This document shows, one piece after another, positions 1,295 through 37,815 of a DNA stretch of 64,000 nucleotides; position 1 is the stretch's first letter, and each line of letters starts with the position of its first letter. A model generated the notes under the pieces. It saw nothing but the letters and a program-made list of their open reading frames with translations. It ran no database searches and was not told the DNA's origin. A program made the translations under genes and the position numbers. Origin of the DNA: a virus; the IMG/VR virus record IMGVR_UViG_3300049629_001293, positions 1 to 64,000 of that record. One strand, given 5' to 3'.

Positions 1295-1299
1295 AAACA

Positions 1300-3585: not shown

Positions 3586-3592
3586 ATTTATT

Positions 3593-3613: not shown

Positions 3614-3621
3614 ATCAAAAC

Positions 3622-3975: not shown

Positions 3976-5860
3976 CACCCCTGAACATTTAAAAAATCCT
4001 CACCTGTCAGCATGGGCATTGGGATTAACAATTGCTGGTTGTAGTTTAGCGATGTTTTCACCTTTGGCAATCAACAAAAACCCACAATTAGGGATTGTTG
4101 GCACGTCTGCGGGTGCAGTGCTATCCATTGCGGGGTGGGTGATGGGGAGTCAATCAGAGAAATCAATCAAGCTACAAGCCAAGGTAGAGGAGCAAACCGA
4201 GGCTATATTCCTGCGGCGGTTGGGGATGGAATATGAGTTAGAAAAATTTAGGGATATTAGATATTTGAACGAAAGTCAGCAAGCGATCGCGCAGCCTAAA
4301 AGCCATGATCAAACATTACCACCATCGCAACAAAGAAGGTCGGATGACAATGAAGGGAATCTTCACCGGAGTCAATTGATGGTTTTAGACCGAGAGAGTC
4401 CTGTGGAATATAATCAAGAGAATCATGATATCTATTCAGATGAACTATCATTTATTCCTTGCGATATTCCCTCCAATCATATCTTAAACTTCTATAACTG
4501 GGATAAGTTAGCCGATGAGTCTTCAGGAATATTAATCGGGGGAAATTCTGGGAGCGCAAAAACATCTCTAGGTGCTGGTTTCGTGATTGGCAAACTAACT
4601 GAGCATAAACCCGCCGAGGTGATTGTTTTGGATATCCACGCTTCAAAAAACCCTATCTGGCAACAAATGGGTTTCCCTAGGGTTGAATCAGATGTTGAAA
4701 TAATTTATCAGATTTTGTGCTGGCTAATTGAAGAAGTCGAAAACCGAAAAGAAAAAGACGGGCATTCTATCATTGTCTGCTTGGATGAAATCAATGATAC
4801 GATGTCCGAGTTAGCACAATTAGACACTATCAAACCATTGCAAAACAAGGAAAAAAGAGTTAAGACTTTTACTTATGCGATTCGGAAACTTTCTAATGCT
4901 AGAAAGTTTGATATTTGTTTAATCGGTTTCATGCAAAGTCATAACACCGAAGCCATAGGAATTGATGGGAAGTTTAGAAATAATTTCCTTTTAATTCTTT
5001 GTGGTGCTAGTGCTAGGAGTGAGATTCAAAACTTGTGGAAACATGACACCCCTGAATTTCAGTACATCCAAAGTGCTGCCTATCCTGTTGTTGTTTGTGG
5101 TTCTAATCAGCATCAAATCGCAGAACACCCAACGCATAAACATCATCTTGAGTATAGAAAAAAAGGCAATGCTCCTGATGGTTTATTAAATCCTATTTTT
5201 TTAAATAAACCAATAGATGTTAAAATAGTTCCATCACCTAATATCAATCTAAAAAAAGATGATGTTCCTAAAGTGCTACAATCAATAAATCCCTTAGATT
5301 GTAATACCTGGCAATCAATAGATTATCCCAGTGGCTTGCAATGGCTACCACAACACGAGGCGGGAGTATATTGTGTATTTGTTAGCGGTTATCAAAACCC
5401 TCTTTATGTAGGTCAATCTAAAGACCTTTGGAGACGTTGGAACAATAAAGGTGACTGGGAACATCATGTTAAAAAACATCTTGAATCAATTGGTGATGTA
5501 TCGGTGAAAATAGCTTTTTACATCACAAAAAATTGGGATGAGCAAAAACGTTTAACTCTTGAGTCAGAATTACAAGCTAAATATAAACCTTCGTGGAATG
5601 GAACAGCTAACAAAACATTACCCGATAAAACACTTTCTGAATCGGCTCAAGCGGTGTTTAATTTCATCAAGGAAATATTTAAGGGTGAACCTATACCAGC
5701 CCGTGACTGTTACCGCAAATCATCACTCAGAACTCAGTTTGGATTAAATGCTGAAACTACTGAGTTGATATTTGATGAATTGCAAAATTTTGGTTTAGGT
5801 CAAAAACTAATCAAGGAAATTAATGGTTTCAGAAGTGTTAACTTTTTACCTGATATGTAG
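3968..5860 (+). CDS. membrane-anchored FtsK/HerA-like ATPase fused to a GIY-YIG nuclease domain
   Basis: 630 aa. Two N-terminal transmembrane segments (about 13-32 and 38-55) and a helical linker lead to a P-loop NTPase domain with Walker A GGNSGSAKTS (about 190-199) and Walker B IIVCLDEIND (about 266-275). The P-loop has Ala where Gly normally precedes the Lys. From about 465 to 555 lies a GIY-YIG domain (GVYCVF...LYVGQSKDLWRRW...ELQAKYKPSWN), then a winged-helix-like tail. FtsK/HerA ATPases pump DNA, and GIY-YIG domains cut it, so the fusion suggests coupled DNA translocation and cleavage at the membrane. The NTPase assignment is confident; the exact subfamily (conjugation, packaging or segregation) is not. 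Confidence 0.8.
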   Translation: MNNTPEHLKNPHLSAWALGLTIAGCSLAMFSPLAINKNPQLGIVGTSAGAVLSIAGWVMGSQSEKSIKLQAKVEEQTEAIFLRRLGMEYELEKFRDIRYLNESQQAIAQPKSHDQTLPPSQQRRSDDNEGNLHRSQLMVLDRESPVEYNQENHDIYSDELSFIPCDIPSNHILNFYNWDKLADESSGILIGGNSGSAKTSLGAGFVIGKLTEHKPAEVIVLDIHASKNPIWQQMGFPRVESDVEIIYQILCWLIEEVENRKEKDGHSIIVCLDEINDTMSELAQLDTIKPLQNKEKRVKTFTYAIRKLSNARKFDICLIGFMQSHNTEAIGIDGKFRNNFLLILCGASARSEIQNLWKHDTPEFQYIQSAAYPVVVCGSNQHQIAEHPTHKHHLEYRKKGNAPDGLLNPIFLNKPIDVKIVPSPNINLKKDDVPKVLQSINPLDCNTWQSIDYPSGLQWLPQHEAGVYCVFVSGYQNPLYVGQSKDLWRRWNNKGDWEHHVKKHLESIGDVSVKIAFYITKNWDEQKRLTLESELQAKYKPSWNGTANKTLPDKTLSESAQAVFNFIKEIFKGEPIPARDCYRKSSLRTQFGLNAETTELIFDELQNFGLGQKLIKEINGFRSVNFLPDM

Positions 5861-5865: not shown

Positions 5866-5905
5866 TAATGGTAAAATTATCATAAAACAAAAACAAGAAA
5901 AAATA

Positions 5906-6319: not shown

Positions 6320-6403
6320 TAAAAAATTAAAACTATTTTACTTTTTACCTGATATGTAGTAGAACCTTTGATTTATCCTATAAGCAAAGCAAAACACAAG
6401 CCC

Positions 6404-6733: not shown

Positions 6734-7006
6734 ATGAAAAAGTCCAAACCAAAATCAGACTATCCAGAGATTGTCGAGTTAGTTGTTGATACTGCCAGAA
6801 AGCGCGGCGGGAATCAATTATTAACAGATGTCAATTGGGTAACTAAGACCTTGTTCAAATATCAGAATGGTGTGATTCCCTTGACTGATACCGACTCCGA
6901 TTGCGTCAGGATTGGAGAGGAGTTAAGACCCCGTTATGAGTGGCAGATCACCAGAGATCATGTAGCTTTTGCTAATCAGAATAGTATTAAGAAGGGATGG
7001 AAATAA
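6734..7006 (+). CDS. hypothetical protein, DYPEIV family
   Basis: 90 aa. Conserved with the product at 1982 over most of its length (DYPEIVELV, WVTKTLFKYQ, DCVRIGEELRPRYEWQIT). It begins immediately after the preceding stop and overlaps the RuvC-like gene by one base (TAATG). The conserved Trp, Asp-Cys-Val and Arg-Pro positions suggest a small folded domain. Function unknown. Confidence 0.75.
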   Translation: MKKSKPKSDYPEIVELVVDTARKRGGNQLLTDVNWVTKTLFKYQNGVIPLTDTDSDCVRIGEELRPRYEWQITRDHVAFANQNSIKKGWK

Positions 7007-7578
7007 TGATCAATACTTTCATCGGAATTGACCCAGGCAAAACCGGAGCGATCGCTATCATTTCTCCATCGGGAATCAAACTCATTGATTGTCCAGTTAT
7101 TGAGATTAAAACTAAGGTTAAAAGCAAAAAGCCAAACCTCACGCTATTTGATCAGGTTGCGGACAAGGGAACAGTCAAGTCCAAGGCCAAGGCCAAACCC
7201 AAAACTAAAATCACAACGAAGTCAAGCCCTGCATTAATGGCATCGGAGTTAGCACAGTTGGCTACCTCAAACTCAATAATCGCCATAGAGAGCGTTCATT
7301 CAATGCCAGGACAGGGAGTTAGATCAACCTTTGATTTTGGGACGAATTTTGGCATTTGGTTGGGAGTGATCGCAGCGTTAAATATTCCTATGGAGTTGGT
7401 GACCCCTCAAGAATGGAAAAAACACTATGGCTTGATAGGGAAAGACAAGGACGCATCAAGGATTATTGCGGTGCAATTATTCCCCCAGATGGCCATGGAA
7501 TTAAAGCTCAAGAAATACAACGGGCGGGCCGAGGCACTTCTCCTTGCTGAATATCTGCGACGCAAAGCAGGAGGCTAG
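7006..7578 (+). CDS. RuvC-like Holliday-junction resolvase
   Basis: 190 aa; ATG at 7006 overlaps the previous stop and has AAGAAGGG upstream (6997 is an alternative start). RNase H-fold signatures: GIDPGKTGAIAI with catalytic Asp9, then IIAIESV with Glu95, then GRAEALLLAEYL at the end where RuvC carries its last acidic residues (here Glu). A Lys-rich insertion of about 35 residues (about 32-68) follows the second strand. Such enzymes resolve recombination or replication branches before packaging. Confidence 0.8.
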   Translation: MINTFIGIDPGKTGAIAIISPSGIKLIDCPVIEIKTKVKSKKPNLTLFDQVADKGTVKSKAKAKPKTKITTKSSPALMASELAQLATSNSIIAIESVHSMPGQGVRSTFDFGTNFGIWLGVIAALNIPMELVTPQEWKKHYGLIGKDKDASRIIAVQLFPQMAMELKLKKYNGRAEALLLAEYLRRKAGG

Positions 7579-7588
7579 GACAAAGCAA

Positions 7589-7801
7589 ATGGGAGATATT
7601 AAAATCTTTAACAAAGATGGTTTTCTAAATTTCGTGGAAGGTAATCTAGCGTCTGCCGAGGATTATAAAAAAGCAGATCGGTGTCAAGGATCTGTTTTTG
7701 AAGCACTGAAACCAGGCTATTTAGTAGAACTCCAAGATGGAATATTTGTTTTAAATAAAGACATGGATATTCGGCGCGAGGTCAGTTGTGGCGATATATG
7801 A
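7589..7801 (+). CDS. hypothetical protein
   Basis: 70 aa, start at ATG 7589 preceded by a very strong AGGAGG at 7570. Small acidic globular protein (DIKIFNKDGFLNFVEGNL...). Last gene of the left operon, 19 bases before the terminator. No recognised family. Confidence 0.65.
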   Translation: MGDIKIFNKDGFLNFVEGNLASAEDYKKADRCQGSVFEALKPGYLVELQDGIFVLNKDMDIRREVSCGDI

Positions 7802-7819
7802 TTAATAGCTAAATATAAA

Positions 7820-7856
7820 CCCCGTCCAAAATACTGATGGACGGGGTTTTGTTTTT
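7820..7856 (+). terminator. rho-independent terminator
   Basis: Perfect 8-bp GC-rich stem CCCCGTCC (7820-7827) / GGACGGGG (7839-7846) followed by TTTTGTTTTT. Ends the left + strand operon. Confidence 0.9.
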
Positions 7857-7911
7857 ATGGATTAACTACCGACTGCGCTAGAACTGAGTACGGAATTGAT
7901 TTATCCTTTCG

Positions 7912-8217
7912 TCAAACTAATTCTAATTCGTGAATTCTTGCCGACAAATCTTTAGTCCATTTTTCCCAGTCGTGGGTTTGACCATATTTGGATCGAAAAT
8001 AATCATGCTCTGACTGAATCAGAGAAATTAGATTATTAGGGAAGCACCCATCAACCCCAAATGCTGACACGGGGAACCCTTCGGGATTGTATTCGGGGCT
8101 GTATTGATAAGTTGTCGCCATTAACGAGATGGCATCCCCAGATACTTTAAACACGGGAGTATTCCAGTTTTCTTTGAATTTTGCTCTCATTAAGTCAATT
8201 GCTGTGTAACTATCCAT
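7912..8217 (-). CDS. hypothetical protein
   Basis: 101 aa, reading leftwards, with GGAGA 8 bases before the start. Aromatic-rich sequence with YQYSPEYNPEGFPVSAFGVDG in the middle and an amphipathic C-terminus. Convergent with the left operon. No recognised family. Confidence 0.6.
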   Translation of the reverse strand: MDSYTAIDLMRAKFKENWNTPVFKVSGDAISLMATTYQYSPEYNPEGFPVSAFGVDGCFPNNLISLIQSEHDYFRSKYGQTHDWEKWTKDLSARIHELELV

Positions 8218-8283
8218 GATTTTGTCTCCGAGTGTTTAACCTTGACCTGTTACTAATATCCCATAGGTCTTAAAGAATGAATG

Positions 8284-8523
8284 TCAAGCCTTTTCCAGAA
8301 ATTTTTTATAGATTTCCTGAAACTCGGACGGTGACAGCATCCCACGCCCTAACCTCTCTATGAGTTCGGCACGAGACAAGCCAAAGGACGCTGACAGGAC
8401 TTTAAGACCGTCCCACGCGACATCGGTGATGTTTATGCCCTTAGAAGTTTTGATTGTGGCGTAGTCACGGGGTTTCCCTCTGCCTCTTTTTGTGTCCATA
8501 ATTATTTTAATTTGGGTTGACAT
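8284..8523 (-). CDS. small ribbon-helix-helix-like regulator
   Basis: 79 aa. A basic N-terminus (KRGRGKPRDYATIK) is followed by a strand-helix-helix pattern (WDGLKVLSASFGLSRAELIERLGRG), as in small cyanobacterial ribbon-helix-helix-like DNA-binding proteins. Divergently placed from the gene at 8572, so it may control the shared 49-base promoter region. The fold call is by pattern only. Confidence 0.55.
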   Translation of the reverse strand: MSTQIKIIMDTKRGRGKPRDYATIKTSKGINITDVAWDGLKVLSASFGLSRAELIERLGRGMLSPSEFQEIYKKFLEKA

Positions 8524-8571
8524 ATTTATTATAACCTGTGCTATGATTATATTATATCACGGGAGGATTAT

Positions 8572-8883
8572 ATGACCGAGCGTAAACAGTGGGCAGGGTT
8601 TTGGGAATACTCTGGAGTTGGAGGCGGTGGAGCCGACAAGGGAAACCCAAACAAATATGGATATCCGATGGAGTTAATCCGTTGGTTGTCAAATCATTAT
8701 CAACAATTCCGATCTTGGAATGTTGAAATTAAAATCGGGGCTCCCCATCATCTTGATGGAAAATTTGGGAAAAATCTCAAGGTTGGAGCCATCAAAGAAG
8801 TTTGGGAACAAGCCAAGCAGGAATTTGAATTAGCAAAAAACAAAGGAGAATCATGGGTGAAGCAAAGCGACGGAAACAGTTAA
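8572..8883 (+). CDS. hypothetical protein
   Basis: 103 aa with a strong GGGAGG ribosome-binding site. Gly-rich start (GVGGGGADKG), then Trp-rich segments and a charged C-terminal helix. Overlaps the next gene by 31 bases. No recognised family. Confidence 0.6.
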   Translation: MTERKQWAGFWEYSGVGGGGADKGNPNKYGYPMELIRWLSNHYQQFRSWNVEIKIGAPHHLDGKFGKNLKVGAIKEVWEQAKQEFELAKNKGESWVKQSDGNS

Positions 8884-9278
8884 ATCCTGAAGGGTTTAGG
8901 AAAGTCTCAGCAACTATCGACGGCAAAAAGTTATTAGTTGACCATTTGAAAATTGAAAGTTATTTTACCGACCCCGATCTAATTGATTGGGTTGAAAACT
9001 TGCTGCCAGACACTTGTAAGAAAAAATTAAGGATTAGAGTACCGAATACATTGACAGGGCTTGGATCTGCCATAGTAAAAGGGAAAGATCCCAAGAAACT
9101 TTATGCAGGGTGGGAACCCAAAATATCAAGGGTTCCATACATGGGATTCCGGCTCTCAAGTGGAAGATTATGGGTCAATCCTAGTTACCCAGGACTACCC
9201 CCTGATTGTAATATTTTGGAATCATGGGTTGATCTCGAAAACCATGTCCCGATCTGGCACAAGTCCATCTGGGATTAG
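8853..9278 (+). CDS. hypothetical protein with MGEAKRRK N-terminus
   Basis: 141 aa. The basic start MGEAKRRK is common to many small phage and plasmid proteins, and AAAGGAGAATC precedes the start. The globular part contains Trp/Pro-rich motifs (LWVNPSYPGLPPDCN). Coupled to the upstream gene by overlap. Function unknown. Confidence 0.65.
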   Translation: MGEAKRRKQLNPEGFRKVSATIDGKKLLVDHLKIESYFTDPDLIDWVENLLPDTCKKKLRIRVPNTLTGLGSAIVKGKDPKKLYAGWEPKISRVPYMGFRLSSGRLWVNPSYPGLPPDCNILESWVDLENHVPIWHKSIWD

Positions 9279-9395
9279 GTTACAAAATTTTATAAGCAAA
9301 TCCGTCCGATTGTGCTTATAATAGAAAAACGGTCGGGGTGAAAACTTTCTTCTGTTTTCGCCTTGTCGTGTCCCACCAGTTATAGGAAGATTGAT

Positions 9396-9515
9396 ATGAA
9401 AATTCCCAAAGAAAAACCCCGTCCTGAGAAGACGGGGGATTCAAAAACACCAAGAGAACGAGTCGAAATCTTTTTTAAAAACAGCAAGGACAAAAGCCAA
9501 TTCATTAAAGTATAA
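9396..9515 (+). CDS. putative basic 39-aa peptide
   Basis: ATG at 9396 with AGGAAGA upstream, stop at 9513-9515. Basic peptide ending in a helical segment (RERVEIFFKNSKDKSQFIKV). A hairpin with stem CCCCGTC/GACGGGG (9417-9439) lies within the frame and would also act as a leftward terminator. The 352-base gap 9279-9630 holds nothing else I can support. Confidence 0.35.
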   Translation: MKIPKEKPRPEKTGDSKTPRERVEIFFKNSKDKSQFIKV

Positions 9516-9630
9516 CAAAGATATCTTGAAAAAACAAGAGTCTTTGCAAAATATTTTATGAATTGGCGATCGCACGGTCAACTAACTCCTTTTCAAACTT
9601 AAACCCCACGATACTAGAGGGATCAACACT

Positions 9631-12600
9631 ATGATTATTCAAAGACATCGAGACGAGTTCCTGGCTTCAGCTATTCATCCCCATATTATCGACTTAAACT
9701 TTGAGTCACTCAAGGGACAGGATGCTCTTGAAGCCGTATTATACGGGGAGATGGAAGCTCTAGGGAAAAAATCACCCCACTCGCTTCAGTACACCACAAC
9801 CCCCCTCAAGAGGCTTTTTGAACGCTTCAAGCACCTAGAGGACGGGGGGTGGAGTTTTAGGGGCATTGATCCTCTCAACTGTTCCCAATATATGAAATGG
9901 GGATGTTTTAAAGCCGATAGACCTCGCTATAGTTTCAGCGACCTATTGAAGATGATTAAATACGAGCATCCGGGGAAAGTGCCTACACGAGCATTTTTCG
10001 TGGTGCCATCCTGGGAGATTGGGGTAAAAATAGCCATCAAAGCGGGTGAGCAGTATATTGAAAGCTACAAGTCCCGATGTCCGCAAGGGGACTTTGATTG
10101 GAGTGAGGGCGATCGCTACTTTTGGGAGTGGGCAATTGAGATCAACTTGCCAATCACGATCACCGAGGGGGCTAAGAAAGCAGCGTGCTTGATATCGGCG
10201 GGATACGCTTGCATCGGATTACCTGGGATTACTGGGGGAGTGCGGACTAGCCGAGAGGACGGTAACGGATTTAAGGAGAAGTGCGCTCCTTACCTGATTC
10301 CTGAGTTAGAGATTTTTGTGACGACAGGGCGACGGGTGAATATTGTTTTTGACCATGAAACAAAAATCAAAACCATTCGCAACGTCCAAAGGGAGATAAA
10401 TAAATTAGGTGAGCTTTTTCAGAAGGACAAACGGGATGTCCGTGTGATCAGTTTTCCTGGGCCAGAGAAGGGAGTTGATGATTTTATCATGGCGCATGGA
10501 GAAGAAGAATTTGATCTTCTATATAACAAGGCTCCTGATTATCGGATTTATCAATTCAACAGAGGGTGGCAACTAACCAAGACTCCGACATTGACCCTAA
10601 ACGTTCGATATTTGGGAGATTTACCCACTCCTACTACTGGGCCTGTTTTTATCTACTCAGGCATGGGAACAGGGAAAACTAAACGGCTAGAACCTATCGC
10701 CCAGGATGCTATTGCTAGTGGGCGGAGGGTTTTGGTGATTACCCACAGGGTTGAACTTGGGCGGGCAATCTGCAATGCGGTGGGTGTGCCTTGGGTTGAG
10801 GAGTGCAAGGGAAGCATTGAGGGGAAAAACCTGGGGTACGGGTTGTGTGTAGATAGTTTACACCCACTGAGCCAAGCCAATTTTAACCCAGAGGATTGGG
10901 AGGGTGCGGTGGTGATCATAGATGAAGTTGAGCAAGTCCTTTGGCATTTGTTCAATTCAACAACCTGTGCCGAAAAACGGACAGCAATCCTTTCAAGTCT
11001 GGAAACGTTACTGAAAAGCGTTCTAACAACGGGAGGATTATTAATTGCCCAAGATGCCGACCTTTCAAATTACTCAATTGACTACCTTACGGAATTGTCG
11101 GGGATTGAAAATCTGGAACCCTACATTGTCGTCAATAAATACAAAGGAAACGGGCGCAAGGTTCGTTTCTATAGCCATAAAGTCGAAGCACTCTATAAAG
11201 AGATAGACAAGCAAATTCGTGAAGGCAAGCGAATGATAATCGTGGAGGATAGCCAAAAAGTTAAAGGCAAGTTCTCGGCAATCAATATGGAATCACACAT
11301 CCGCAAGAATCATCCCCACGTCCGTGTTATTCGGATTGACTCGGAGACTGTATCAAATCCAAATCACCCGGCTTTTTGCTGTGCAAAAAACATTGACACG
11401 GTGATTGAATCGGGTCAATATGACGTTGTGATTGCTTCCCCCACAATCGGGACAGGTGTATCTATTGACCTCAAAGGCTATTTTCACAGCGTGTTTGGGC
11501 TTTTCAAGGGAGCGATCGCCACAAACGATGTCCTCCAGATGATGTCGCGGCTTCGGGACTTGGCGGCTGAATGGCATTTATGGTGCGCTCAATACGGGTG
11601 CAGCAAGGTTGGGAATGGGTCATCTGGCGCGCACGTCCTCCTTGAATCTCAAGATCGGGTGACTCGCAAGCATATCGAAATCTTAGAGAAATACGACAGG
11701 GCAGGATTTGATATCGACACCCAAACCGACACACGGCACACAAGTGCATGGGCTAAGTATGCGGCACGAATCAACGCAGGGCAGTGGAAATACCGAGAAA
11801 CGGTTCTTTACCTATTGAAACAGGAAGGGCATGATGTTTCCAATTCGGATGATTCTCAAATGCGGTTTGACGAGGATAGATTAGCTTCTGAAGAAGCGAT
11901 CGCCCGACAAATGGGGGATTTAGAGAAAGCCGACGATATTCAATACGAACGGGGACGGATTGAAGTCATCACGGACGAGCTTGACAGTAAGATTCAGGTA
12001 ATCAAAGCCGAGGCGGAGGAGATTCGCACCCAGAATCGGGTGGCGAACGCCGAGGTAATCACGAACGCGGAGGATATTTCGTTCTCTAAATACGAGAAAC
12101 TGCAAGACAAGAAAGCCAAAACCCCAGAAGAACTGGCGGAGCAGCAAAAATACTACCTGAAGGACACATATAAAATAGATGTCACGCCAGAGCTTGTCTT
12201 AAAGGACGAGGACGGTTGGCTAAAACAGCTACGATTGCACTATTTCTATATGAATCCTGAGCAAGTTCATGATCGGGATGCCAATCACATCAAAAATGCG
12301 GTACAAAACGGGGATGGGCAAGTCCACCTGCCGGACATCAAACTTTATAGTGCCTGTGTTGAAATTCTCAAGTTGATGGAACTGGATCGATTCCTGAACG
12401 GAGAGGAATTTACTAATGAATCCGAATTGATCCAAAAACTAGGCAAAATCTTCAAGGAACAGGGGCGAGAGATTCGGGAATATTTTAAGGTAGGGCCGAC
12501 AGGCTTGACCCCGATTGCTCAGATCAACCGATTTTTCAAAGATACTATTGGACTAAGAATGTCTGGGCGGCAAATCCGTGACGAGGAAGGGAATAGAACA

Positions 12601-13203
12601 AGAGCTTATTCCTTCAAAGGCTTTGAGGATGGACGTTCTGTGGTTTTTGAAGCCTGGGATAAAAATGTAGCCCAATATACCAATAACGAGATAATGGCTG
12701 TCACACCAAAACATAATAGAAGATTAATAAAAAACACTGACACCACTAATAAAATTCAGTGTGATCAAATTCAGTGTGATCATGGAGAAGAAGGAACACC
12801 CTTTCCAGTAGATATAAAGCGGGGGGAAGAAGCCCAGCAAGTAGCGATTTCATTGACCGAGCCAGAAGAAGCTCAAAACACTCCCAAAGATTGGCAAAAT
12901 CAGGGGAGTGCGGTGGGTTCCGGTACTTTGGTAGAGGCGGTGTCGAATAGTTGGAAGGGTGTTGTGCGGCTGGTTAAGTCGGTCTTCCCTGAATGTTGGG
13001 TAGCTAAGTATGAAGTCAGCTTCCTAAAACGAAACCTCTTGCTAGAGACAGCAGGGAAGGCATTTACAATCGACTCACCCACCGCACAATGGGTTCATAA
13101 CGCATTAGACCCCGATGGTGGTGCATGGGCTTTCCAGGGCTACATAGAGGGCAGTACGCAGATGTACACAATCCCTCTGGGATGCCTGGATTTCAATCCA
13201 TAA
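9631..13203 (+). CDS. CyRepA1-family replication protein (primase-like plus helicase)
   Basis: 1190 aa. The N-terminal third carries the DUF3854-type region typical of cyanobacterial plasmid replication proteins (PITITEGAKKAACLISAGYA, then GLPGITGG, at about 175-205). A helicase core follows with P-loop GMGTGKT (about 345), Walker B VVIIDEVE (about 428) and later motifs SPTIGTGVSID (about 602) and MMSRLRD (about 635). The C-terminal 500 residues are charged and helical. The protein would recognise the origin, unwind and prime. Ten iterons start 10 bases after its stop, matching a rep-ori unit. Codons near 12690-12780 contain a segment duplicated at 30.73-30.84 kb. Confidence 0.88.
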   Translation: MIIQRHRDEFLASAIHPHIIDLNFESLKGQDALEAVLYGEMEALGKKSPHSLQYTTTPLKRLFERFKHLEDGGWSFRGIDPLNCSQYMKWGCFKADRPRYSFSDLLKMIKYEHPGKVPTRAFFVVPSWEIGVKIAIKAGEQYIESYKSRCPQGDFDWSEGDRYFWEWAIEINLPITITEGAKKAACLISAGYACIGLPGITGGVRTSREDGNGFKEKCAPYLIPELEIFVTTGRRVNIVFDHETKIKTIRNVQREINKLGELFQKDKRDVRVISFPGPEKGVDDFIMAHGEEEFDLLYNKAPDYRIYQFNRGWQLTKTPTLTLNVRYLGDLPTPTTGPVFIYSGMGTGKTKRLEPIAQDAIASGRRVLVITHRVELGRAICNAVGVPWVEECKGSIEGKNLGYGLCVDSLHPLSQANFNPEDWEGAVVIIDEVEQVLWHLFNSTTCAEKRTAILSSLETLLKSVLTTGGLLIAQDADLSNYSIDYLTELSGIENLEPYIVVNKYKGNGRKVRFYSHKVEALYKEIDKQIREGKRMIIVEDSQKVKGKFSAINMESHIRKNHPHVRVIRIDSETVSNPNHPAFCCAKNIDTVIESGQYDVVIASPTIGTGVSIDLKGYFHSVFGLFKGAIATNDVLQMMSRLRDLAAEWHLWCAQYGCSKVGNGSSGAHVLLESQDRVTRKHIEILEKYDRAGFDIDTQTDTRHTSAWAKYAARINAGQWKYRETVLYLLKQEGHDVSNSDDSQMRFDEDRLASEEAIARQMGDLEKADDIQYERGRIEVITDELDSKIQVIKAEAEEIRTQNRVANAEVITNAEDISFSKYEKLQDKKAKTPEELAEQQKYYLKDTYKIDVTPELVLKDEDGWLKQLRLHYFYMNPEQVHDRDANHIKNAVQNGDGQVHLPDIKLYSACVEILKLMELDRFLNGEEFTNESELIQKLGKIFKEQGREIREYFKVGPTGLTPIAQINRFFKDTIGLRMSGRQIRDEEGNRTRAYSFKGFEDGRSVVFEAWDKNVAQYTNNEIMAVTPKHNRRLIKNTDTTNKIQCDQIQCDHGEEGTPFPVDIKRGEEAQQVAISLTEPEEAQNTPKDWQNQGSAVGSGTLVEAVSNSWKGVVRLVKSVFPECWVAKYEVSFLKRNLLLETAGKAFTIDSPTAQWVHNALDPDGGAWAFQGYIEGSTQMYTIPLGCLDFNP
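12755..12781 (+). repeat. two ATTCAGTGTGATC repeats inside the rep gene
   Basis: Two direct copies of AATTCAGTGTGATCA at a 14-base period inside the coding sequence (KIQCDQIQCD). The same motif (as TGTCACACTGAATT) recurs in the intergenic region at 30.7-31.1 kb, so these are probably protein-binding sites as well as codons. Confidence 0.6.
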
Positions 13204-13212
13204 AATAGGCAA

Positions 13213-13322
13213 TATTGTCCTGATATTGTCCTGATATTGTCCTGATATTGTCCTGATATTGTCCTGATATTGTCCTGATATTGTCCTGATATTGTCCTGA
13301 TATTGTCCTGATATTGTCCTGC
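13213..13322 (+). repeat. ten 11-bp iterons, putative replication origin
   Basis: Ten head-to-tail copies of TATTGTCCTGA (nine perfect, the last 10 of 11) start just after the rep stop. The 11-base period puts each copy on the same face of the helix, as in iteron origins. The following sequence (13355-13390) is AT-rich, suitable for opening. Open frames read through the repeats are artefacts of the periodicity. Confidence 0.85.
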
Positions 13323-13540
13323 CCACAAAATCAGAATCAAAAAGGACATCGCAACACCTCAAAAAATATTTTCAGAAAACGCTTGACATATTCTGGATAT
13401 CTGTATTCGTGTGTTCCATTCTAACCTTTTTTGATTTTAACTATTGATCCACCACCCGATTTGACGATATTTGGCTATAGGATCGTTTTTGTTGAGCGGT
13501 GGCTTGCCAACTAAAAGCCTTACAAAAGCGAAGATAAAGA
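13323..13540. other. AT-rich region beside the iterons
   Basis: No gene. It contains an A/T block (CAAAAAATATTTTCAG) and a TTGACA box at 13383 in the same arrangement as the promoter family at 14593, but without a convincing -10. Candidate unwinding element of the origin. Confidence 0.4.
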
Positions 13541-13544
13541 ATAA

Positions 13545-13590
13545 AATAACACCAGAAGAGAATGTTTTTCCTGGTGTTATTCTTTATATT
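13545..13590. terminator. bidirectional terminator-like hairpin
   Basis: Long stem AATAACACCAG (13545-13555) / CTGGTGTTATT (13571-13581) flanked by A-rich and T-rich tracts. Lies 19 bases downstream of the methyltransferase stop on the - strand and probably ends that transcript. Confidence 0.65.
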
Positions 13591-13599
13591 TTGTTGGTT

Positions 13600-14334
13600 C
13601 TATTTAGAAAGAATGATTATTTTCCCCCCGACGTTAGTTCCGCTTTCTTTGAATGCTCCCTGCTCAATATCTAAGACTTCCGCATCATTCTCGTCTAGGA
13701 ATTGAATAAACTGGATCTGTTTCCGTTGACTCCCGTTAAACCAGGACGTAGAACAAATCGAAACCAACCGACCACCATCATTTAAACAGTCCCACATCTT
13801 TAGGATATGGTCAATATCCTGATTTTTGGTAAATGGAGGATTGGCAATAATCCGGTCATACTTCCCCTCGCTATGATTCAGAAAATCGTCTCCTAGTAAA
13901 TTGAATTTGAGCTTGGTTTTTTTTAGGATAATGCGATTAACCTCCATCAACTCGTAGCAGTCCACCCTTACATTACAAATGGCGTTTATCGCCCGAATGA
14001 TGGCTCCTTGTCCGGCGCTCGGCTCTAATATTGAATGGTTATTATCAACCTTCGCTAGTTCAACCAAGTAGTTAGCGAGTGGGGCAGGGGTTCCAAAAAA
14101 CTGAAATTCTTTCTTGAGATTGCGATCGCCACCATTGGCAATTTCGCTTAATAATTCAGTTGGATCAGTTAAGAAAACAAATCCTTGAACTTTCCCTCCT
14201 TTCCACTTGCCACCGATTAAATTAAGGGATTTGGCAACTTCCAGATAAAGTTTTCTTTCTAACTGGTCTTCTGGGAGTTTGACGATATTCCCGTCAACGG
14301 TACATTTAGACAAAATATCTTCTTTCGTGGTCAT
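13600..14334 (-). CDS. N6-adenine DNA methyltransferase (class I SAM-dependent)
   Basis: 244 aa. SAM-binding motif I EPSAGQG (104-110) and catalytic motif IV IIANPPF (162-168) identify an adenine-N6 methyltransferase. The first 80 residues form a small accessory domain that could read the target. No restriction partner is adjacent, so an orphan role in shielding phage or plasmid DNA or in regulation is likely. AAGGAATT precedes the start. Confidence 0.82.
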   Translation of the reverse strand: MTTKEDILSKCTVDGNIVKLPEDQLERKLYLEVAKSLNLIGGKWKGGKVQGFVFLTDPTELLSEIANGGDRNLKKEFQFFGTPAPLANYLVELAKVDNNHSILEPSAGQGAIIRAINAICNVRVDCYELMEVNRIILKKTKLKFNLLGDDFLNHSEGKYDRIIANPPFTKNQDIDHILKMWDCLNDGGRLVSICSTSWFNGSQRKQIQFIQFLDENDAEVLDIEQGAFKESGTNVGGKIIILSK

Positions 14335-14592
14335 AATTCCTTATGGTTCCTACTCTTTGTTGTTGGATTAGGGGTTATTCCCTATTGCTCCAATTATAAC
14401 TTAAACCCGATGAATTATCAATGACAACACCACAAGAACAAAAAGAGTGACTAGCAGGGGTTGGGTTTCGCGTGTTACGGGGTGATTAGGCTTTTTGGAT
14501 GGCAGTCCCACAAAAATCCCTTACAAGAATAAGCCCAGACACCGGACACACAGGGACTTTCAGGGATTTCTAAAAATTCTTTTAGAAATCGC
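14335..14592. other. intergenic region with a GTGTAACAC-type motif
   Basis: No convincing gene. It contains GGTTTCGCGTGTTAC at 14464-14478, the exact reverse complement of 28976-28990, and an A/T block (TTCTAAAAATTCTTTTAG) just upstream of the promoter at 14593 that could be an UP element. Confidence 0.45.
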
Positions 14593-14621
14593 TTGACAAT
14601 TCCTATGGTTCGAGCTATAGT
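14593..14621 (+). promoter_or_regulatory. sigma70 promoter, CCTAGGG-type family
   Basis: TTGACA (14593-14598), 17-base spacer with TTCCTATGG, TATAGT (14616-14621), then a leader containing AAAGTAGAAAACAAA. Spacer and leader match promoters at 25438, 29866 and 31413. Serves the gene at 14712. Confidence 0.75.
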
Positions 14622-14711
14622 TAAAAAAGTAGAAAACAAAAGGCGAAACGGCTGGCTACCCTGCAAAAGTCACCAACCGAATCCCTCCACCTAACACAAG
14701 GCTTAAATACC

Positions 14712-15332
14712 ATGTTACACCAAACGAACCACTTAGTCAAACCCGAATACAGAAACAGAATAATTGTAGCCCAGGTTTTGACTTGGGACAATTACGGACA
14801 ACAAGAGGTGAGACCGGAAGATATCACACAGATGGCGATCAGCGATGGGATCTTAACCTACCGACTGGGGGCGAAAGCCCACCCCATAGGGGTTGATCAG
14901 TTCGACCGCTTCTGGAAAGCGATACAAGAAGCTAAAAAAGCCGAAGCCCAGAAACAAGCCCAAAAACAAGCCCAAAAACAAGCCCAGGAAGCAGCAACCG
15001 AACCCGAATGGAAAATTGAACACTCCTTTATAGACTTCGATGATACGGAAGTAGATGTAGTAAGCCGAACAATCAACGGGGTCAAAGAAACCCGGATGAT
15101 GTGGAAGGAAGACACACTTTACGACCTGGACTTTGCGATCCGCACAAGCTCAGGTGTGGTGGTCAAAGCCTCCTGGAAGTATGGACACCGCAATTCATGG
15201 TTAAACGCCTACCGAGGCCTCTGGACGGCCCGTAACCGCCAACGGAACGCGGAACGGGACGCTATTGAACAGATGGAAGCCGAACACGACGATGCCCGAT
15301 CCTACTGGGAAATGGCAGACGCAGCATATTAA
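14712..15332 (+). CDS. hypothetical protein with QKQA repeats
   Basis: 206 aa. The N-terminal domain (about 1-75) is followed by a helical linker with near-perfect four-residue repeats (EAQKQAQKQAQKQAQEA), then a second domain rich in Asp, Arg and Trp (YGHRNSWLNAYRGLWTARNR). Transcribed from the promoter at 14593. No recognised family; the repeat makes a long charged spacer helix likely. Confidence 0.65.
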   Translation: MLHQTNHLVKPEYRNRIIVAQVLTWDNYGQQEVRPEDITQMAISDGILTYRLGAKAHPIGVDQFDRFWKAIQEAKKAEAQKQAQKQAQKQAQEAATEPEWKIEHSFIDFDDTEVDVVSRTINGVKETRMMWKEDTLYDLDFAIRTSSGVVVKASWKYGHRNSWLNAYRGLWTARNRQRNAERDAIEQMEAEHDDARSYWEMADAAY

Positions 15333-15340
15333 AATCCGAG

Positions 15341-15359
15341 GGGGGATTTTTGCCCCCCA
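15341..15359 (+). terminator. G/C hairpin after the 14712 gene
   Basis: Stem GGGGGG (15341-15346) / CCCCCC (15354-15359) around ATTTTTG, 8 bases after the stop. There is no T-run, so it may be a stability or processing element like the other intergenic G-tract hairpins. Confidence 0.35.
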
Positions 15360-15392
15360 AGATAGCTAACTTAGAATCTTGAAAGGAGAAAC

Positions 15393-15641
15393 ATGAACGC
15401 ATCGGAAATTAGACACGCCTTTAATAATTATGACAAAGATTATTTAACCCTCCCTGATGGCGTGGAGCTATGGGGAACAAGAGATGGTGATTGGTGGGCT
15501 ACGGGGACTAAGTGGTTCCTTCTAAAAGGCAACTCAGTTATTTCAAGCCTTTACCAACCGCCTAATGACGATATGAAAGAGGCAAAACGCCTCCGCACTA
15601 AGTGGCTTAATGAACTAATGCGGAGTGGGGAAGGACTGTAA
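15393..15641 (+). CDS. hypothetical protein
   Basis: 82 aa with a strong AAAGGAGAAAC ribosome-binding site. Short, acidic-aromatic (WGTRDGDWWATGTKWF) with a basic C-terminal helix. No recognised family; part of a run of small + strand genes. Confidence 0.6.
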   Translation: MNASEIRHAFNNYDKDYLTLPDGVELWGTRDGDWWATGTKWFLLKGNSVISSLYQPPNDDMKEAKRLRTKWLNELMRSGEGL

Positions 15642-15691
15642 ACTCCCCTAGCCTTTCAAAAACAACACTACAAACGCAAGGAACTAAAACT

Positions 15692-16078
15692 ATGTCAGTA
15701 TTTATCGTTTCCGATAACCATATCAATACAATTCTGAGTTACGTTAACAACAGTCAAGGGCAAAAAAATTCATTGTTTAGTAGTTATAACTACAATGATT
15801 TGCTGAAAATTGGGAAAATGTTTATCGAAGCTAATATCGAGAGCTATGAAACTCGATACCCTAAAGAGAAAGTTGAAAGGTTTGAATATGAGCTAAAATT
15901 GTTCCCCGTCAATATCTCGGTGATGCAATTCATAAAATACATGAACTGCCTTGAATATCAATGCAATGAAGTTGAAAACTGGGAATCTACAGAAGCATCA
16001 AAACTGATAAATTGTTGGGTAAACTCGGCATACCAACATTTACCAGAATGGCAAGCCGCCAAATGGGAAATTGCTTAA
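15692..16078 (+). CDS. hypothetical protein
   Basis: 128 aa, mostly helical and soluble (FPVNISVMQFIKYMNCLEYQ). The last codons and stop (GGGAAATTGCTTAAT, 16064-16078) are duplicated in tandem immediately downstream (16080-16094), suggesting replication slippage at the gene end. No recognised family. Confidence 0.6.
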   Translation: MSVFIVSDNHINTILSYVNNSQGQKNSLFSSYNYNDLLKIGKMFIEANIESYETRYPKEKVERFEYELKLFPVNISVMQFIKYMNCLEYQCNEVENWESTEASKLINCWVNSAYQHLPEWQAAKWEIA

Positions 16079-16144
16079 TTGGGAAATTGCTTAATCATCA
16101 GTCATCGGTTATCAGTTAAAAACAATATAATCAACAGAGGAATC

Positions 16145-17029
16145 ATGTCATCTCAAATTGAATCAACTGAATTTTCCCCCGTTAAGTACCCCAACGGGTT
16201 AACCGTAACCAAGTCGATGACAACCCCATCAAAACCAGGCAAGAAACCCCGCGAGGTTTGGACTGTGACGGGGTTAACGCTTAACGAATACCGTGACGCA
16301 TTATATGACCTTGGTGGTCGCCCCTATCCCCGTAGCTCAAAGCATAATTTCAACTTCTGGGATGACCCCAATAGTGATATCGCAGCGTTAAACGATAGCG
16401 ATAAAACATCCTTTGCCGAACAGCAAGAGGGAATGAAAAAACGGGCGGTAGCTCGTTCAGAGCGATATAAGGAGTTAGCTCAAAAGAACTCCGATAAATC
16501 AAACGCTTATTATCAGACTTCTAGTGACGCTGTAGCAGGCATCCCCCTGGGGCAACCCATCCTAATCGGTCATCATAGCGAAGGGCGACATCGGCGCGAT
16601 ATAGCCCGTTGTCATAGTGCTATGGACAAGAGTGTAGAGCATCAAAAGAAATCGGAACACTACGAATATAAAGCAGCCGTTGCAGCCAGTAATGCCGAAA
16701 GCCACGGCATTGAGTTTATTGGCAACCGAATTGCCGACTGTGAGGCTAAAATTCGGGCTTGCGAAAAATACCCAGACACGCAGTTTTATATTCAACAAAA
16801 GAAAGAGGAAGAAGAAAAATTAGAATACTGGAAACAGAAGTTCGATGAAGCTGGCGGGTTACGGGTTGAGATTAGCAAGATAAAGAAGGGTGACTATATT
16901 AAGGTGCGGGGTCAGTGGTACACGGTAATCAGGGTTAACAAAAAGACCGTAACCCATTCATGGTTTTATGAAGGCGGAGAATGGAAAAGCCCACACCATG
17001 AAATTCAAGAGCATAAAACGGTAGTATAG
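16145..17029 (+). CDS. DUF3560 domain protein
   Basis: 294 aa from ATG 16145; the upstream frame to 16079 runs through the tandem duplication and lacks a good start. The central region (about 105-190) matches the DUF3560 pattern found in plasmid and phage proteins (YYQTSSDAVAGIPLGQPIL, then GHHSEGRHRRDIAR). A coiled coil follows, and the C-terminal 60 residues form a small beta domain. Function unknown; the family is common on mobile elements. Confidence 0.75.
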   Translation: MSSQIESTEFSPVKYPNGLTVTKSMTTPSKPGKKPREVWTVTGLTLNEYRDALYDLGGRPYPRSSKHNFNFWDDPNSDIAALNDSDKTSFAEQQEGMKKRAVARSERYKELAQKNSDKSNAYYQTSSDAVAGIPLGQPILIGHHSEGRHRRDIARCHSAMDKSVEHQKKSEHYEYKAAVAASNAESHGIEFIGNRIADCEAKIRACEKYPDTQFYIQQKKEEEEKLEYWKQKFDEAGGLRVEISKIKKGDYIKVRGQWYTVIRVNKKTVTHSWFYEGGEWKSPHHEIQEHKTVV

Positions 17030-17040
17030 GGCAAAAATAA

Positions 17041-17349
17041 ATGCAACACAGACTGTACGGATTAAGAGGAGAGGCATACACCCAGGAATATAAACGGTTG
17101 TACACCGAGCTTGCTCCAGAGATCAAAACAGAAATTTTGAAACTCAAGACTTCATCGGGGAGTTTCACGATCTACGACTTTGGCAGTTTATGTATGAAGT
17201 TTGAAATCCCTGCAATAGTGATGGACGACTACCTAAACTCAATTTTCCCTCCTCCTTCTGATAGCTTCTTTTGGGGTGCAGGGACGTGGGAGAGACTTCA
17301 TAGCAATGGGGTCAAAGCCGAAGACATCGGGATAGCGTGGGGTGATTAG
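17041..17349 (+). CDS. hypothetical protein
   Basis: 102 aa, starting 11 bases after the DUF3560 gene and so probably co-transcribed. Tyr-rich N-terminus, then an acidic C-terminal part. No recognised family. Followed by a terminator. Confidence 0.6.
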   Translation: MQHRLYGLRGEAYTQEYKRLYTELAPEIKTEILKLKTSSGSFTIYDFGSLCMKFEIPAIVMDDYLNSIFPPPSDSFFWGAGTWERLHSNGVKAEDIGIAWGD

Positions 17350-17369
17350 AAAGGAGATGATCATTTAGT

Positions 17370-17407
17370 GCCGCCCTTTTTTCGTGGAGGGCGGTGTTTC
17401 TATTTTT
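17370..17407 (+). terminator. rho-independent terminator
   Basis: Stem CCGCCCT (17371-17377) / AGGGCGG (17388-17394) followed by a T-rich tail. Ends the 14712-17349 gene run. Confidence 0.75.
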
Positions 17408-17449
17408 TGATACAATACAATTAATTAAACAAAAAGCAAGGAGAAGGCT

Positions 17450-17755
17450 GTGGAAAACAAATGTCCCAGATGTGGAAGCAAATCTTTCTATTACAATGGA
17501 ATAAGAAAGCGAAAAACAGGCGACGCACAGCAATATCGCTGCAAAAACTGCAATAAACAATGGATTGATGAACCTCTGCCAGGAGGAAGACCTCCTCTAT
17601 TGACCTCCTACGACGACGAATATTGGTGCCGGAACCATTTAGGCGTTAGAGCCAAAGCCAAGGGCTTGTGCGCGAACTGTTACGCCACTCACCGAAGAAA
17701 GGAGAGGGGAAAAGGAAAACCAGATCCCCTTGAGTCTCTATTAGTTTTAAGTTGA
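17450..17755 (+). CDS. small double zinc-finger protein
   Basis: 101 aa from GTG 17450 (AAGGAGAAG upstream). First zinc ribbon CPRCGSKSFYYNG...YRCKNCNKQW resembles the N-terminal finger of IS1-type and related transposases. The linker PGGRPPL leads to a second finger CRNH...CANCYATH. A paralogue at 32334 shares the ribbon and the GGRP linker. Probably DNA-binding; there is no transposase catalytic domain, so it is not a transposon fragment by itself. Confidence 0.7.
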   Translation: MENKCPRCGSKSFYYNGIRKRKTGDAQQYRCKNCNKQWIDEPLPGGRPPLLTSYDDEYWCRNHLGVRAKAKGLCANCYATHRRKERGKGKPDPLESLLVLS

Positions 17756-17816
17756 GGATTAGCCAATAGAAAACCCTGGTCATGCCAGGGTTAAGGTGTC
17801 TATTTTAGGCGATCGC

Positions 17817-18077
17817 TTATTTCCCGTCACCTAAAACCGCATCCTCTAATTGCTTTAGCCGCGACTCTATTGCCATGAACCTCTTGCTGTCTGGACTGGG
17901 ATTGGCAGAATTGATCGCTTCTATCCCTGCTTTTATTAAAAGTTTTAGGGTTCGCCCTTGATTGAACTCCAGCATTTTCCCAGGCGTGGGATAACTCTCT
18001 AACCCGATTTTCTCCATCTCCTCGTAGATTTCGGGAGGGCATCGGAAATTGATTGCTATAGAAGATTGTCTGTTCAT
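17817..18077 (-). CDS. ribbon-helix-helix-like DNA-binding protein
   Basis: 86 aa. INFRCPPEIYEEMEKIG at the N-terminus fits strand plus first helix, and a second helix follows (GRTLKLLIKAGIEAI). The C-terminus is a short coiled coil. Paralogous to the product at 35775 (INFRCP...). AGTAAAC boxes cluster in its upstream region, so autoregulation is likely. Confidence 0.7.
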   Translation of the reverse strand: MNRQSSIAINFRCPPEIYEEMEKIGLESYPTPGKMLEFNQGRTLKLLIKAGIEAINSANPSPDSKRFMAIESRLKQLEDAVLGDGK

Positions 18078-18087
18078 GATGGAATAT

Positions 18088-18209
18088 GGTTTACATTATT
18101 TCCCTTATTATAGCCTATTGTTGACATTTTGCAATACATAAGTAAACCAGTAGAGTAAACTGTAATTATGTAAGAAATACTAAATGTGAATGGTTGCAAA
18201 AAAGTAAAC
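18088..18209. promoter_or_regulatory. operator/promoter region with four AGTAAAC-type boxes
   Basis: GTAAACC on the - strand (18088-18094), AAGTAAACC (18140-18148), GAGTAAAC (18153-18160) and AAAGTAAAC (18201-18209). A leftward promoter with -10 TATAAT (complement of 18107-18112) and -35-like TTGCAA serves the ribbon-helix-helix gene. TTGACA at 18121 may belong to a rightward one. Confidence 0.5.
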
Positions 18210-18265
18210 GGATTAGGTACTATGCAAGACAGTTTTCTGAATTTTAAAAAATTAGGAGCGATCGC

Positions 18266-18445
18266 ATGAATTATTTTATCATTAAAGCTAAAGGTGCATC
18301 TGTCTTTTGGACAGGTACTCAATGGCATCATCCAGCTAAAAGATATAAGTCAAGAAAGATAGCTGAGAATGCTATCAGAAAAACAACCAATCACTATGAG
18401 TTTAAAAGACGAGAAAAAGAAGTAATAGAAATCAATCTTCCATAA
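18266..18445 (+). CDS. small basic protein
   Basis: 59 aa, ATG at 18266 with TTAGGAG upstream, followed directly by a terminator. Compact basic-aromatic sequence (FWTGTQWHHPAKRYKSRK). Expressed divergently from the ribbon-helix-helix gene across the operator boxes. No recognised family. Confidence 0.65.
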   Translation: MNYFIIKAKGASVFWTGTQWHHPAKRYKSRKIAENAIRKTTNHYEFKRREKEVIEINLP

Positions 18446-18452
18446 AATTCAA

Positions 18453-18489
18453 CCCCGTAAAGTTAATTTACGGGGTCTGTTATTATTTC
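18453..18489 (+). terminator. rho-independent terminator
   Basis: Perfect 9-bp stem CCCCGTAAA (18453-18461) / TTTACGGGG (18467-18475) then a T-rich tract. Ends the 59-aa gene; convergent with the - strand gene ending at 18483. Confidence 0.85.
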
Positions 18490-18788
18490 TTTTTCTTCCA
18501 ACTTTTTCCGACTTTATTTAACAAGCCAGGAAACATTCTAGTCCAAAATATTCCCCCTATAGCAAAAGCAATCATTGTGGCTTTAGTCGGTGGATCACAA
18601 TTAAAAGGAAACCCACCAGCCCTATTGTCGAAAGTTTTATAACCAACAATATTGTCATCGTCAATATCGGCAGTTTTAGTAACTAGCCTTAACCAATTAA
18701 TAAATAATTGAGGATCGGATTCAAAAACCATTTCAACAATCCGATCCTCAATCAATCCCAACTTTTTCGCATCCATCATTTTTACCAT
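18483..18788 (-). CDS. hypothetical protein with C-terminal membrane segment
   Basis: 101 aa. Acidic N-terminal helical part, then a hydrophobic segment (TMIAFAIGGIFWTRMF, about 70-85) and a Lys-rich tail (KVGKSWKKKK). The layout is compatible with a small holin or membrane effector, but there is no family match. Overlaps the upstream methyltransferase by 7 bases. Confidence 0.55.
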   Translation of the reverse strand: MVKMMDAKKLGLIEDRIVEMVFESDPQLFINWLRLVTKTADIDDDNIVGYKTFDNRAGGFPFNCDPPTKATMIAFAIGGIFWTRMFPGLLNKVGKSWKKKK

Positions 18789-37704: not shown

Positions 37705-37815
37705 GTTTTACATAGGGGTCAAGAAAACACCTCTTAAACACAACAGAGTCAGAAGGGCTACTTTCTCAGGGACGCCCAACCGACTCACCAAACCCTAGTT
37801 AAAGGATTCAATATC

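What the first reader, a model, noticed from the sequence alone, without database searches (positions are those of the whole stretch)
9631..13322. Plasmid-type replicon inside a tailed phage: a likely phage-plasmid
A CyRepA1-like initiator directly followed by ten in-phase 11-bp iterons is a textbook rep-ori unit, yet 20 kb of virion genes lie on the same molecule and no integrase is visible. This indicates a phage-plasmid lifestyle in cyanobacteria.
Basis: partly seen in the sequence, partly recalled or inferred. Interest (0 to 1): 0.7.

Follow-up and report, generated by a model that had tools for sequence, protein, structure and literature searches.

The report
Cyanophage carrying a plasmid replication gene
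This virus of a bloom-forming cyanobacterium has taken up a plasmid's replication gene and probably lives inside its host as a circular plasmid, but the repeated DNA first read as its replication origin looks like the scar of a lost CRISPR cassette.

Summary
ORF 9631-13203 is a full CyRepA1 plasmid replication protein (NCBIfam NF042913, 436 bits, cut-off 200), followed by ten perfect 11-bp repeats (13212-13321), on a contig collinear with Planktothrix phage PaV-LD (capsid protein 98.4% identical). Two other IMG/VR contigs carry the same Rep at the same site in the same phage backbone and read across the window record's ends, so the map is circular (about 99.8 kb) with no chromosomal flank. PaV-LD and a circular relative without Rep carry a DnaB module that the Rep phages lack, and the PaV-LD integrase locus is empty in them: the replication module was swapped. 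The phage Reps sit inside plasmid CyRepA1s in the tree. Phage-plasmid is the best reading (0.6), but no partition gene was found, a Rep-less relative also lacks the integrase, and circularity can come from permuted virion DNA. The 'textbook rep-ori' part fails: both sisters have about two copies, 2.2-2.4 kb away, because a CRISPR array and a C2c8 (type V-U2) gene lie directly after Rep. The window keeps a truncated repeat; its ten copies lie at a deletion scar. Phage-borne C2c8 arrays aim at CyRepA1 loci of a host plasmid.

The parts
9631..13203 (+). CyRepA1-family replication protein, 1190 aa: DUF3854 (aa 164-292), helicase related to herpes origin-binding protein, Walker A GTGKT (aa 346-350), DExEQ (aa 431-435)
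   Evidence: NF042913 2e-130, 436.5 bits vs cut-off 200; PF12965 2e-42, PF02399 3.8e-6; alignment with plasmid CyRepA1s; PDB 9hgj E 4.1e-5; motif names recalled
13212..13321 (.). ten perfect 11-bp direct repeats ATATTGTCCTG
   Evidence: about 2 copies in G001 (34284-34304) and G002 (38111-38131)
13191..13213 (+). truncated CRISPR repeat left at the 3' end of the Rep gene, abutting the 11-bp repeats
   Evidence: 23/23 identical to array repeats of G001 and G002
7579..18515 (.). about 10.9-kb replicon island (Rep, repeats, methylase-like, DUF3560 and other genes) absent from PaV-LD, where the flanking genes are adjacent
6997..7578 (+). left flank: homologue of PaV-LD ORF119L (crossover junction endodeoxyribonuclease), 49% identical
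18483..18788 (-). right flank: homologue of PaV-LD ORF118L, 88.5% identical
12677..12782 (+). dispersed repeat lying in frame inside Rep (aa 1013-1051); other copies at 30742-30914(-), record 65119-65289 and 89899-89975(-)
3917..5860 (+). 647-aa protein; aa 190-431 are 79% identical to a gene near CyRepA1 in P. agardhii plasmids
41147..46192 (-). tail tape measure protein (PaV-LD ORF088R homologue)
   Evidence: PaV-LD annotation
57558..58511 (-). major capsid protein, 98.4% identical to PaV-LD ORF073R
59361..60896 (-). head maturation protease (phrog_530)
   Evidence: 87% to PaV-LD ORF071R
61995..63632 (-). portal-like protein (phrog_21); the homologue of the gene annotated portal in PaV-LD lies outside the window at record 66091-68085
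37791..37833 (+). sequence matched by spacers of other phages' C2c8 arrays (16/16 and 34/38 matched nt)

Best explanation
A PaV-LD-type tailed phage of Planktothrix has taken up a cyanobacterial plasmid replication gene (CyRepA1) as an island between two phage genes. It now starts copying of its circular DNA with that protein (a Toprim-like DUF3854 domain fused to a helicase), in place of the DnaB-type module of its relatives, and most likely persists between lytic cycles as a CyRepA1 plasmid instead of integrating. Shown: the Rep family, its position, repeated linkage to the phage backbone, circular map, loss of the DnaB module, empty integrase locus, nesting of Rep among plasmid Reps. Inferred: that Rep is active, that it drives extrachromosomal prophage maintenance, and that the host is Planktothrix. 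The origin is unknown; the ten 11-bp repeats are probably not its essential core but an expanded element at the scar of a deleted CRISPR-C2c8 cassette.
For: NF042913 match 2e-130; also in G001 and G002, absent from G006 and G007. 46.7% identity over 86% to Rep of P. agardhii plasmids NZ_LR882937 and AP017993, while the listed phage matches are 21.6-27.7% (30 of 69 listed). Tree of 12 chosen rows: the phage Reps are a clade (100/100), sister to those two plasmid Reps (94/99), inside plasmid CyRepA1s. Backbone collinear with PaV-LD, TerL 96.9% and MCP 98.4% identical. Rep and MCP on one 87-kb contig, G001; Rep in the same backbone in G002. G002 covers the gap between the record's last and first bases, about 1.36 kb, giving a circular map. 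DnaB module (PaV-LD ORF007) only in PaV-LD and G006. No integrase at the PaV-LD integrase locus in G000, G001, G002, G005. A different phage contig (L094: portal, TerL) carries CyRepA1 beside ParA. Published: CyRepA1 (slr7037) is needed for autonomous replication of pSYSA and works in Synechococcus 7942 (passages of PMC9978351).
Against: No ParA in six frames of G000, G001, G002, G005; no partition or toxin-antitoxin family among 64 G000 ORFs by Pfam. G006, circular and PaV-LD-like, lacks both Rep and integrase, so lack of integrase need not mean plasmid life. A circular map also fits headful, permuted virion DNA. MCP matches in the plasmid collection are only 7, all distant, and only one distant hit came from 84,980 species genomes, so no host-borne copy was seen. 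The non-coding DNA before Rep is unlike that of the plasmids. Cumulative GC skew turns at 22.1 and 68.2 kb, not at Rep. A distant helicase of this kind sits in a phage that has an integrase.
Confidence: 0.6

Rival explanations
1. CyRepA1 is only the lytic replication protein: a strictly lytic phage swapped its DnaB module for a plasmid-type helicase-initiator and has no plasmid state.
For: The DnaB module is missing exactly in the Rep phages; no partition genes; distant helicases of this kind occur in phages such as Leptolyngbya phage Lbo402-yong5; a Rep-less relative without integrase exists.
Against: The Rep is a full CyRepA1 nested in plasmid Reps, not close to the distant phage helicase; antirepressor-type genes are present (Rha PF09669; KilA-N); PaV-LD itself carries an integrase.
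Confidence: 0.3
2. Integrated prophage: an unrecognised recombinase inserts it in the chromosome and the circular map is an assembly of excised copies.
For: PaV-LD and G007 have an integrase, so the lineage could integrate.
Against: No PF00589 or PF00239 match in G000, G001, G002, G005; three contigs overlap round the circle without host flanks.
Confidence: 0.06
3. Chimeric assembly of a Planktothrix plasmid with a phage.
For: Planktothrix plasmids carry related CyRepA1s and share the 4490-5175 segment.
Against: Rep at the same site between the same phage genes in three contigs, two of them from other datasets, 94-99% identical; no plasmid record matches this Rep at 60% identity or more (447 of 447 below 60%).
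Confidence: 0.02
4. The ten 11-bp repeats are the true iteron origin of this genome, the two copies in the sisters being a minimal version.
For: Perfect, in register, beside Rep, far above chance.
Against: About two copies and 2.2-2.4 kb away in sisters with nearly the same Rep; the array abuts a truncated CRISPR repeat, i.e. a deletion joint; in the published pSYSA model the control region lies upstream of CyRepA1 (passages of PMC10899382 and PMC9978351).
Confidence: 0.2

Closest known systems
Planktothrix phage PaV-LD (HQ683709)
   Same: Collinear backbone; MCP 98.4%, TerL 96.9%, head maturation protease 87% amino-acid identity.
   Different: PaV-LD has an integrase (ORF018R) and a DnaB-type helicase module, and no CyRepA1 match.
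CyRepA1 plasmids of P. agardhii (NZ_LR882937 p3, AP017993 plasmid2) and pSYSA slr7037
   Same: Same Rep family and domain order; 46.7% and 33.8% identity.
   Different: No virion genes annotated in NZ_LR882937; it has ParA/ParG, the phage has no ParA; upstream DNA unlike.
Phage-plasmids with RepA-type initiators (Vibrio phage VP882, Halomonas phiHAP-1); cyanophage Mic1 with ParABS
   Same: Plasmid-type replication or partition gene in a tailed phage (Mic1: passages of PMC7156551). That VP882 and phiHAP-1 are plasmid prophages is recalled.
   Different: Their RepA are below 28% identical to this Rep; Mic1 is reported with ParA and ParB, which this phage lacks.
Aphanizomenon phage vB_AphaS-CL131
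   Same: PaV-LD relative with beta clamp, no integrase and a type V-U2 CRISPR-Cas locus (passages of PMC6293099).
   Different: DnaB helicase (same passages); MCP 34.5% identical. The window itself has lost the CRISPR locus.

Membership tests
CyRepA1 plasmid replication proteins | match above the curated NF042913 cut-off | tested here: met
   436.5 vs 200 bits
CyRepA1 plasmid replication proteins | N-terminal DUF3854 plus DEXD helicase | tested here: met
   PF12965 aa 164-292, helicase aa 407-646; architecture as in PMC10079941 (passages)
CyRepA1 plasmid replication proteins | supports autonomous replication | not testable with these tools
   needs a cloning test
Phage-plasmid | virion genes and plasmid replicon on one molecule | tested here: met
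   window record, G001, G002
Phage-plasmid | extrachromosomal circular prophage | tested here: inconclusive
   circular map through G002, also expected of permuted virion DNA
Phage-plasmid | partition system (frequent, not universal) | tested here: not met
   no PF13614 in G000, G001, G002, G005; none by Pfam in 64 ORFs
Phage-plasmid | stable inheritance in the host | not testable with these tools
   needs a lysogen
Iteron-type rep-ori unit | tandem direct repeats beside the rep gene | tested here: met
Iteron-type rep-ori unit | array kept among close relatives with the same Rep | tested here: not met
   about 2 copies, 2.2-2.4 kb away in G001 and G002
Iteron-type rep-ori unit | Rep binds the repeats; DnaA boxes | not tested
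   -
PaV-LD-like phages | MCP, TerL and gene order | tested here: met
PaV-LD-like phages | DnaB module and integrase as in PaV-LD | tested here: not met
Type V-U2 (C2c8) CRISPR locus, sister contigs | C2c8 effector beside a CRISPR array | tested here: met
   PADLOC Cas12u2 3.9e-107; array in 19 of 21 loci
Type V-U2 (C2c8) CRISPR locus, window | effector and array | tested here: not met
   0 repeats in G000 at up to 7 mismatches, only a 23-nt remnant at 13191-13213

The most novel reading that the evidence does not exclude
PaV-LD-type cyanophages exist in alternative replication configurations, integrase plus DnaB or a captured CyRepA1 plasmid replicon. The CyRepA1 form lives as a plasmid in bloom-forming Planktothrix and can carry a small type V-U2 CRISPR array whose leader lies in the rep gene itself; phage-borne V-U2 arrays are used in a contest over CyRepA1 replicons, aiming at rival plasmids' rep control regions and at the Rep phages.
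Probability: 0.3. Interest if true: 0.78.

Novelty: new variant of a known kind. Interest (0 to 1): 0.6.

Why it matters
If true, a common bloom-forming cyanobacterium hosts phages that move between chromosomal and plasmid prophage life by exchanging one module. That would help explain why PaV-LD-type phages are present with little lysis, and it gives a testable system for phage-plasmid evolution: near-identical capsids with different replicons. The V-U2 arrays would show phages attacking the same plasmid replicon that some of them have taken up.

Tried and rejected
Ten repeats as conserved origin: not accepted, because G001 and G002 have about two copies. Origin by homology: the non-coding DNA before Rep has no significant nucleotide match to plasmid upstream regions. 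GC skew does not point to Rep. Direct terminal repeat of the window record: none. Chimeric assembly: rejected. Homologues in plasmids of the 161-bp stretch around the dispersed repeat: none. Structure of Rep from 4 sequences: mean pLDDT 35.3, unusable, no fold search made. TerL of this phage in 20 contigs (18 with C2c8, plus those of L012 and L083): 0 of 20, without a positive control, so it shows little. The TnpB reading of the 558-aa sister protein is less likely: the best PADLOC model is Cas12u2, the three best plasmid relatives are annotated c2c8, and an array lies beside it in 19 of 21 loci, although it also shares sequence with TnpB. Nine Nodularia phage records with distant Rep matches were not looked at.

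Spacer work: from 19 arrays, spacers of 25-60 nt were kept (86 unique; the recurring 16-nt ones were dropped) and hits near array repeats were dropped as self. The control used mononucleotide shuffles. Only plasmid NZ_LR882937 was compared whole against the shuffles; other plasmid records were compared without them.
Full report
What is in the window. The window is bases 1-64000 of a 98,464-base IMG/VR virus record. ORF 9631-13203 codes for 1190 aa and is followed by ten perfect copies of ATATTGTCCTG (13212-13321). The unit is far above chance: 13 matches with up to one mismatch against 1.25 expected. The protein is a CyRepA1-family plasmid replication protein by NCBIfam (436.5 bits, cut-off 200), with DUF3854 and a helicase region that resembles the herpes origin-binding protein. 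Its best matches in plasmids are P. agardhii NZ_LR882937 and AP017993 (46.7% identity over 86%; 447 plasmid records match, 65 over at least 80% of the query). In phage records 69 match, none over 80% of the query and none at 60% identity or more.

What carries it. The major capsid protein is 98.4% identical to that of Planktothrix phage PaV-LD. Nucleotide and protein comparison show the record collinear, inverted, with PaV-LD over nearly its whole length. Rep lies in a 10.9-kb stretch between the homologues of PaV-LD ORF119L and ORF118L, which are adjacent in PaV-LD. A Planktothrix host is inferred from this likeness.

Is the linkage real. A viral-contig scan with Rep found three loci: in G001 (87,370 b), G002 (57,491 b) and an 8.3-kb fragment. 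G001 carries both Rep (95%) and the MCP (100%). In G001 and G002 the Rep island sits between the same two phage genes. G002 aligns with the end of the window record (93051-98464) and, about 1.47 kb further on, with its start (107-7589), so about 1.36 kb is missing and the map closes as a circle of about 99.8 kb; G001 also crosses the junction. The window record itself has no terminal repeat. G006, a PaV-LD-like contig of 96,184 b with a 127-bp exact terminal repeat, has no Rep. Of the other PaV-LD-type contigs, G004, G005 and G007 do not cover the island site, so only PaV-LD and G006 test its absence.

Module swap. PaV-LD and G006 carry the DnaB-type helicase (ORF007) and neighbours; tblastn finds no ORF007 in G000, G001, G002 or G005. 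All four cover the corresponding end of the map, where G000 has a beta clamp and a ribonucleotide reductase instead. The PaV-LD integrase sits between ORF011 and ORF019; that interval is 3.7 kb in PaV-LD but 336-1484 b and without integrase in G006, G000, G001, G002 and G005, while G007 has the integrase. So the Rep phages lack both modules, but lack of integrase is not unique to them.

Origin of Rep. In a tree of 12 chosen rows the three phage Reps are one clade, sister to NZ_LR882937 rep1 and AP017993 (94/99), inside plasmid CyRepA1s; some branches are long and the program warns of possibly false joins. The conserved core is about aa 1-1010; the tail is phage-specific and contains, in frame, a dispersed repeat found at three other places in the record. 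A second plasmid-like stretch (ORF 3917-5860, aa 190-431, 79%) lies near CyRepA1 in the same plasmids. At the same end of the map G001 has homologues of the PaV-LD endopeptidase, holin and FtsK genes (ORF123, 124, 127); none was found in G000 or G002.

The repeats are not a conserved origin. In G001 and G002 the DNA directly after Rep is a CRISPR array (4 and 7 repeats of 37 nt; 3 and 6 spacers). The two spacers far from Rep are shared and those next to Rep differ, so spacers seem to be added at the Rep end. Beside it in G001, on the other strand, is a 558-aa protein: Cas12u2/C2c8 (PADLOC 3.9e-107; Pfam Cas12f1-like TNB; plasmid relatives annotated c2c8); G002 has it too. The 11-bp unit occurs about twice beyond this cassette, 2.2-2.4 kb from Rep. 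In the window 23 nt matching the CRISPR repeat (13191-13213) run straight into the repeats, and the cassette is gone. The simplest history is deletion of the cassette and expansion of the unit from two to ten copies; this is inference. I therefore do not accept the repeats as the demonstrated origin (0.2). In the published work on pSYSA the control region lies upstream of CyRepA1 (passages).

CRISPR on the sisters. A scan with the C2c8 protein gave 21 loci; 19 have an array with this repeat or a variant, L079 and L082 none. Only G001 and G002 also have Rep. Of 86 unique spacers, 5 match plasmid NZ_LR882937 (E up to 0.002; shuffled sets: mean 0.5, maximum 2, of 50 sets), and all 5 lie in a CyRepA1 gene or within 1.6 kb upstream of one. 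One of the five is only a 17-nt match; over their full length the other four have 1, 5, 6 and 7 mismatches. Another 5 match PaV-LD-type contigs (shuffles: mean 0.48, maximum 2); one is identical over 35 nt to G001, and the matches to G000 and G001 fall at window 37.8 kb or at G001 62.2-63.0 kb, which is about its counterpart. None of the seven spacers of G001 and G002 had a convincing match. A phage-borne V-U2 system is already described in the PaV-LD relative CL131, where one of ten spacers partly matches a DNA primase pseudogene (passages of PMC6293099).

How it most likely works. Rep binds an origin near its gene (place unknown), opens it with its helicase and perhaps primes through the DUF3854 domain; host polymerase with the phage beta clamp copies the circle. 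As prophage it would be a plasmid; on induction the same or other initiation feeds packaging. Activity, origin and prophage state are inferred. A distinct phage contig, L094, with portal, terminase, CyRepA1 (490 bits) and ParA (PF13614) suggests that CyRepA1 in phages is not confined to this lineage and can sit beside a partition gene.

Known or new. Cyanobacterial phage-plasmids have been suggested (Mic1, ParABS; passages of PMC7156551) and phage-like plasmids in Microcystis (passages of PMC12510456). In the listings of my searches for CyRepA1 (6 papers), PaV-LD (30 of 32 listed), phage-plasmid with cyanobacteria (20 of 33 listed) and with cyanophage (12 of 16 listed) I saw no report of CyRepA1 in a phage. 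I read only passages of nine papers.

Noticed in passing
G001 32100-34058; G002 35709 onwards (L040, L045): Type V-U2 CRISPR array and C2c8 gene directly downstream of Rep, with different spacers at the Rep end and shared spacers at the far end.
   Followed up: yes
L064-L081: The same C2c8 cassette at 78-100% identity in 18 further IMG/VR contigs; no CyRepA1 in these loci. Some of their spacers match CyRepA1 loci of a host plasmid.
   Followed up: partly
12677-12782, 30742-30914 (-), record 65119-65289, 89899-89975 (-): Dispersed repeat, one copy in frame inside the Rep gene.
   Followed up: partly
L094 4086-15180: Another CyRepA1 phage contig with portal, terminase and a ParA gene.
   Followed up: partly
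record 65432-65842: Small protein 33% identical to the one coded directly upstream of CyRepA1 in P. agardhii plasmids.
   Followed up: no
window 1-6700: Homologues of the PaV-LD endopeptidase, holin and FtsK genes, present in G001, were not found in the window record.
   Followed up: partly
46990-56075 and 61995-63632: A set of paralogous proteins sharing phrog_33618 / phrog_16619 domains, one of them the portal-like protein.
   Followed up: no
L008 3659-5398: PaV-LD DnaB helicase gene carries an insertion, probably an intein, that the G006 homologue lacks.
   Followed up: no
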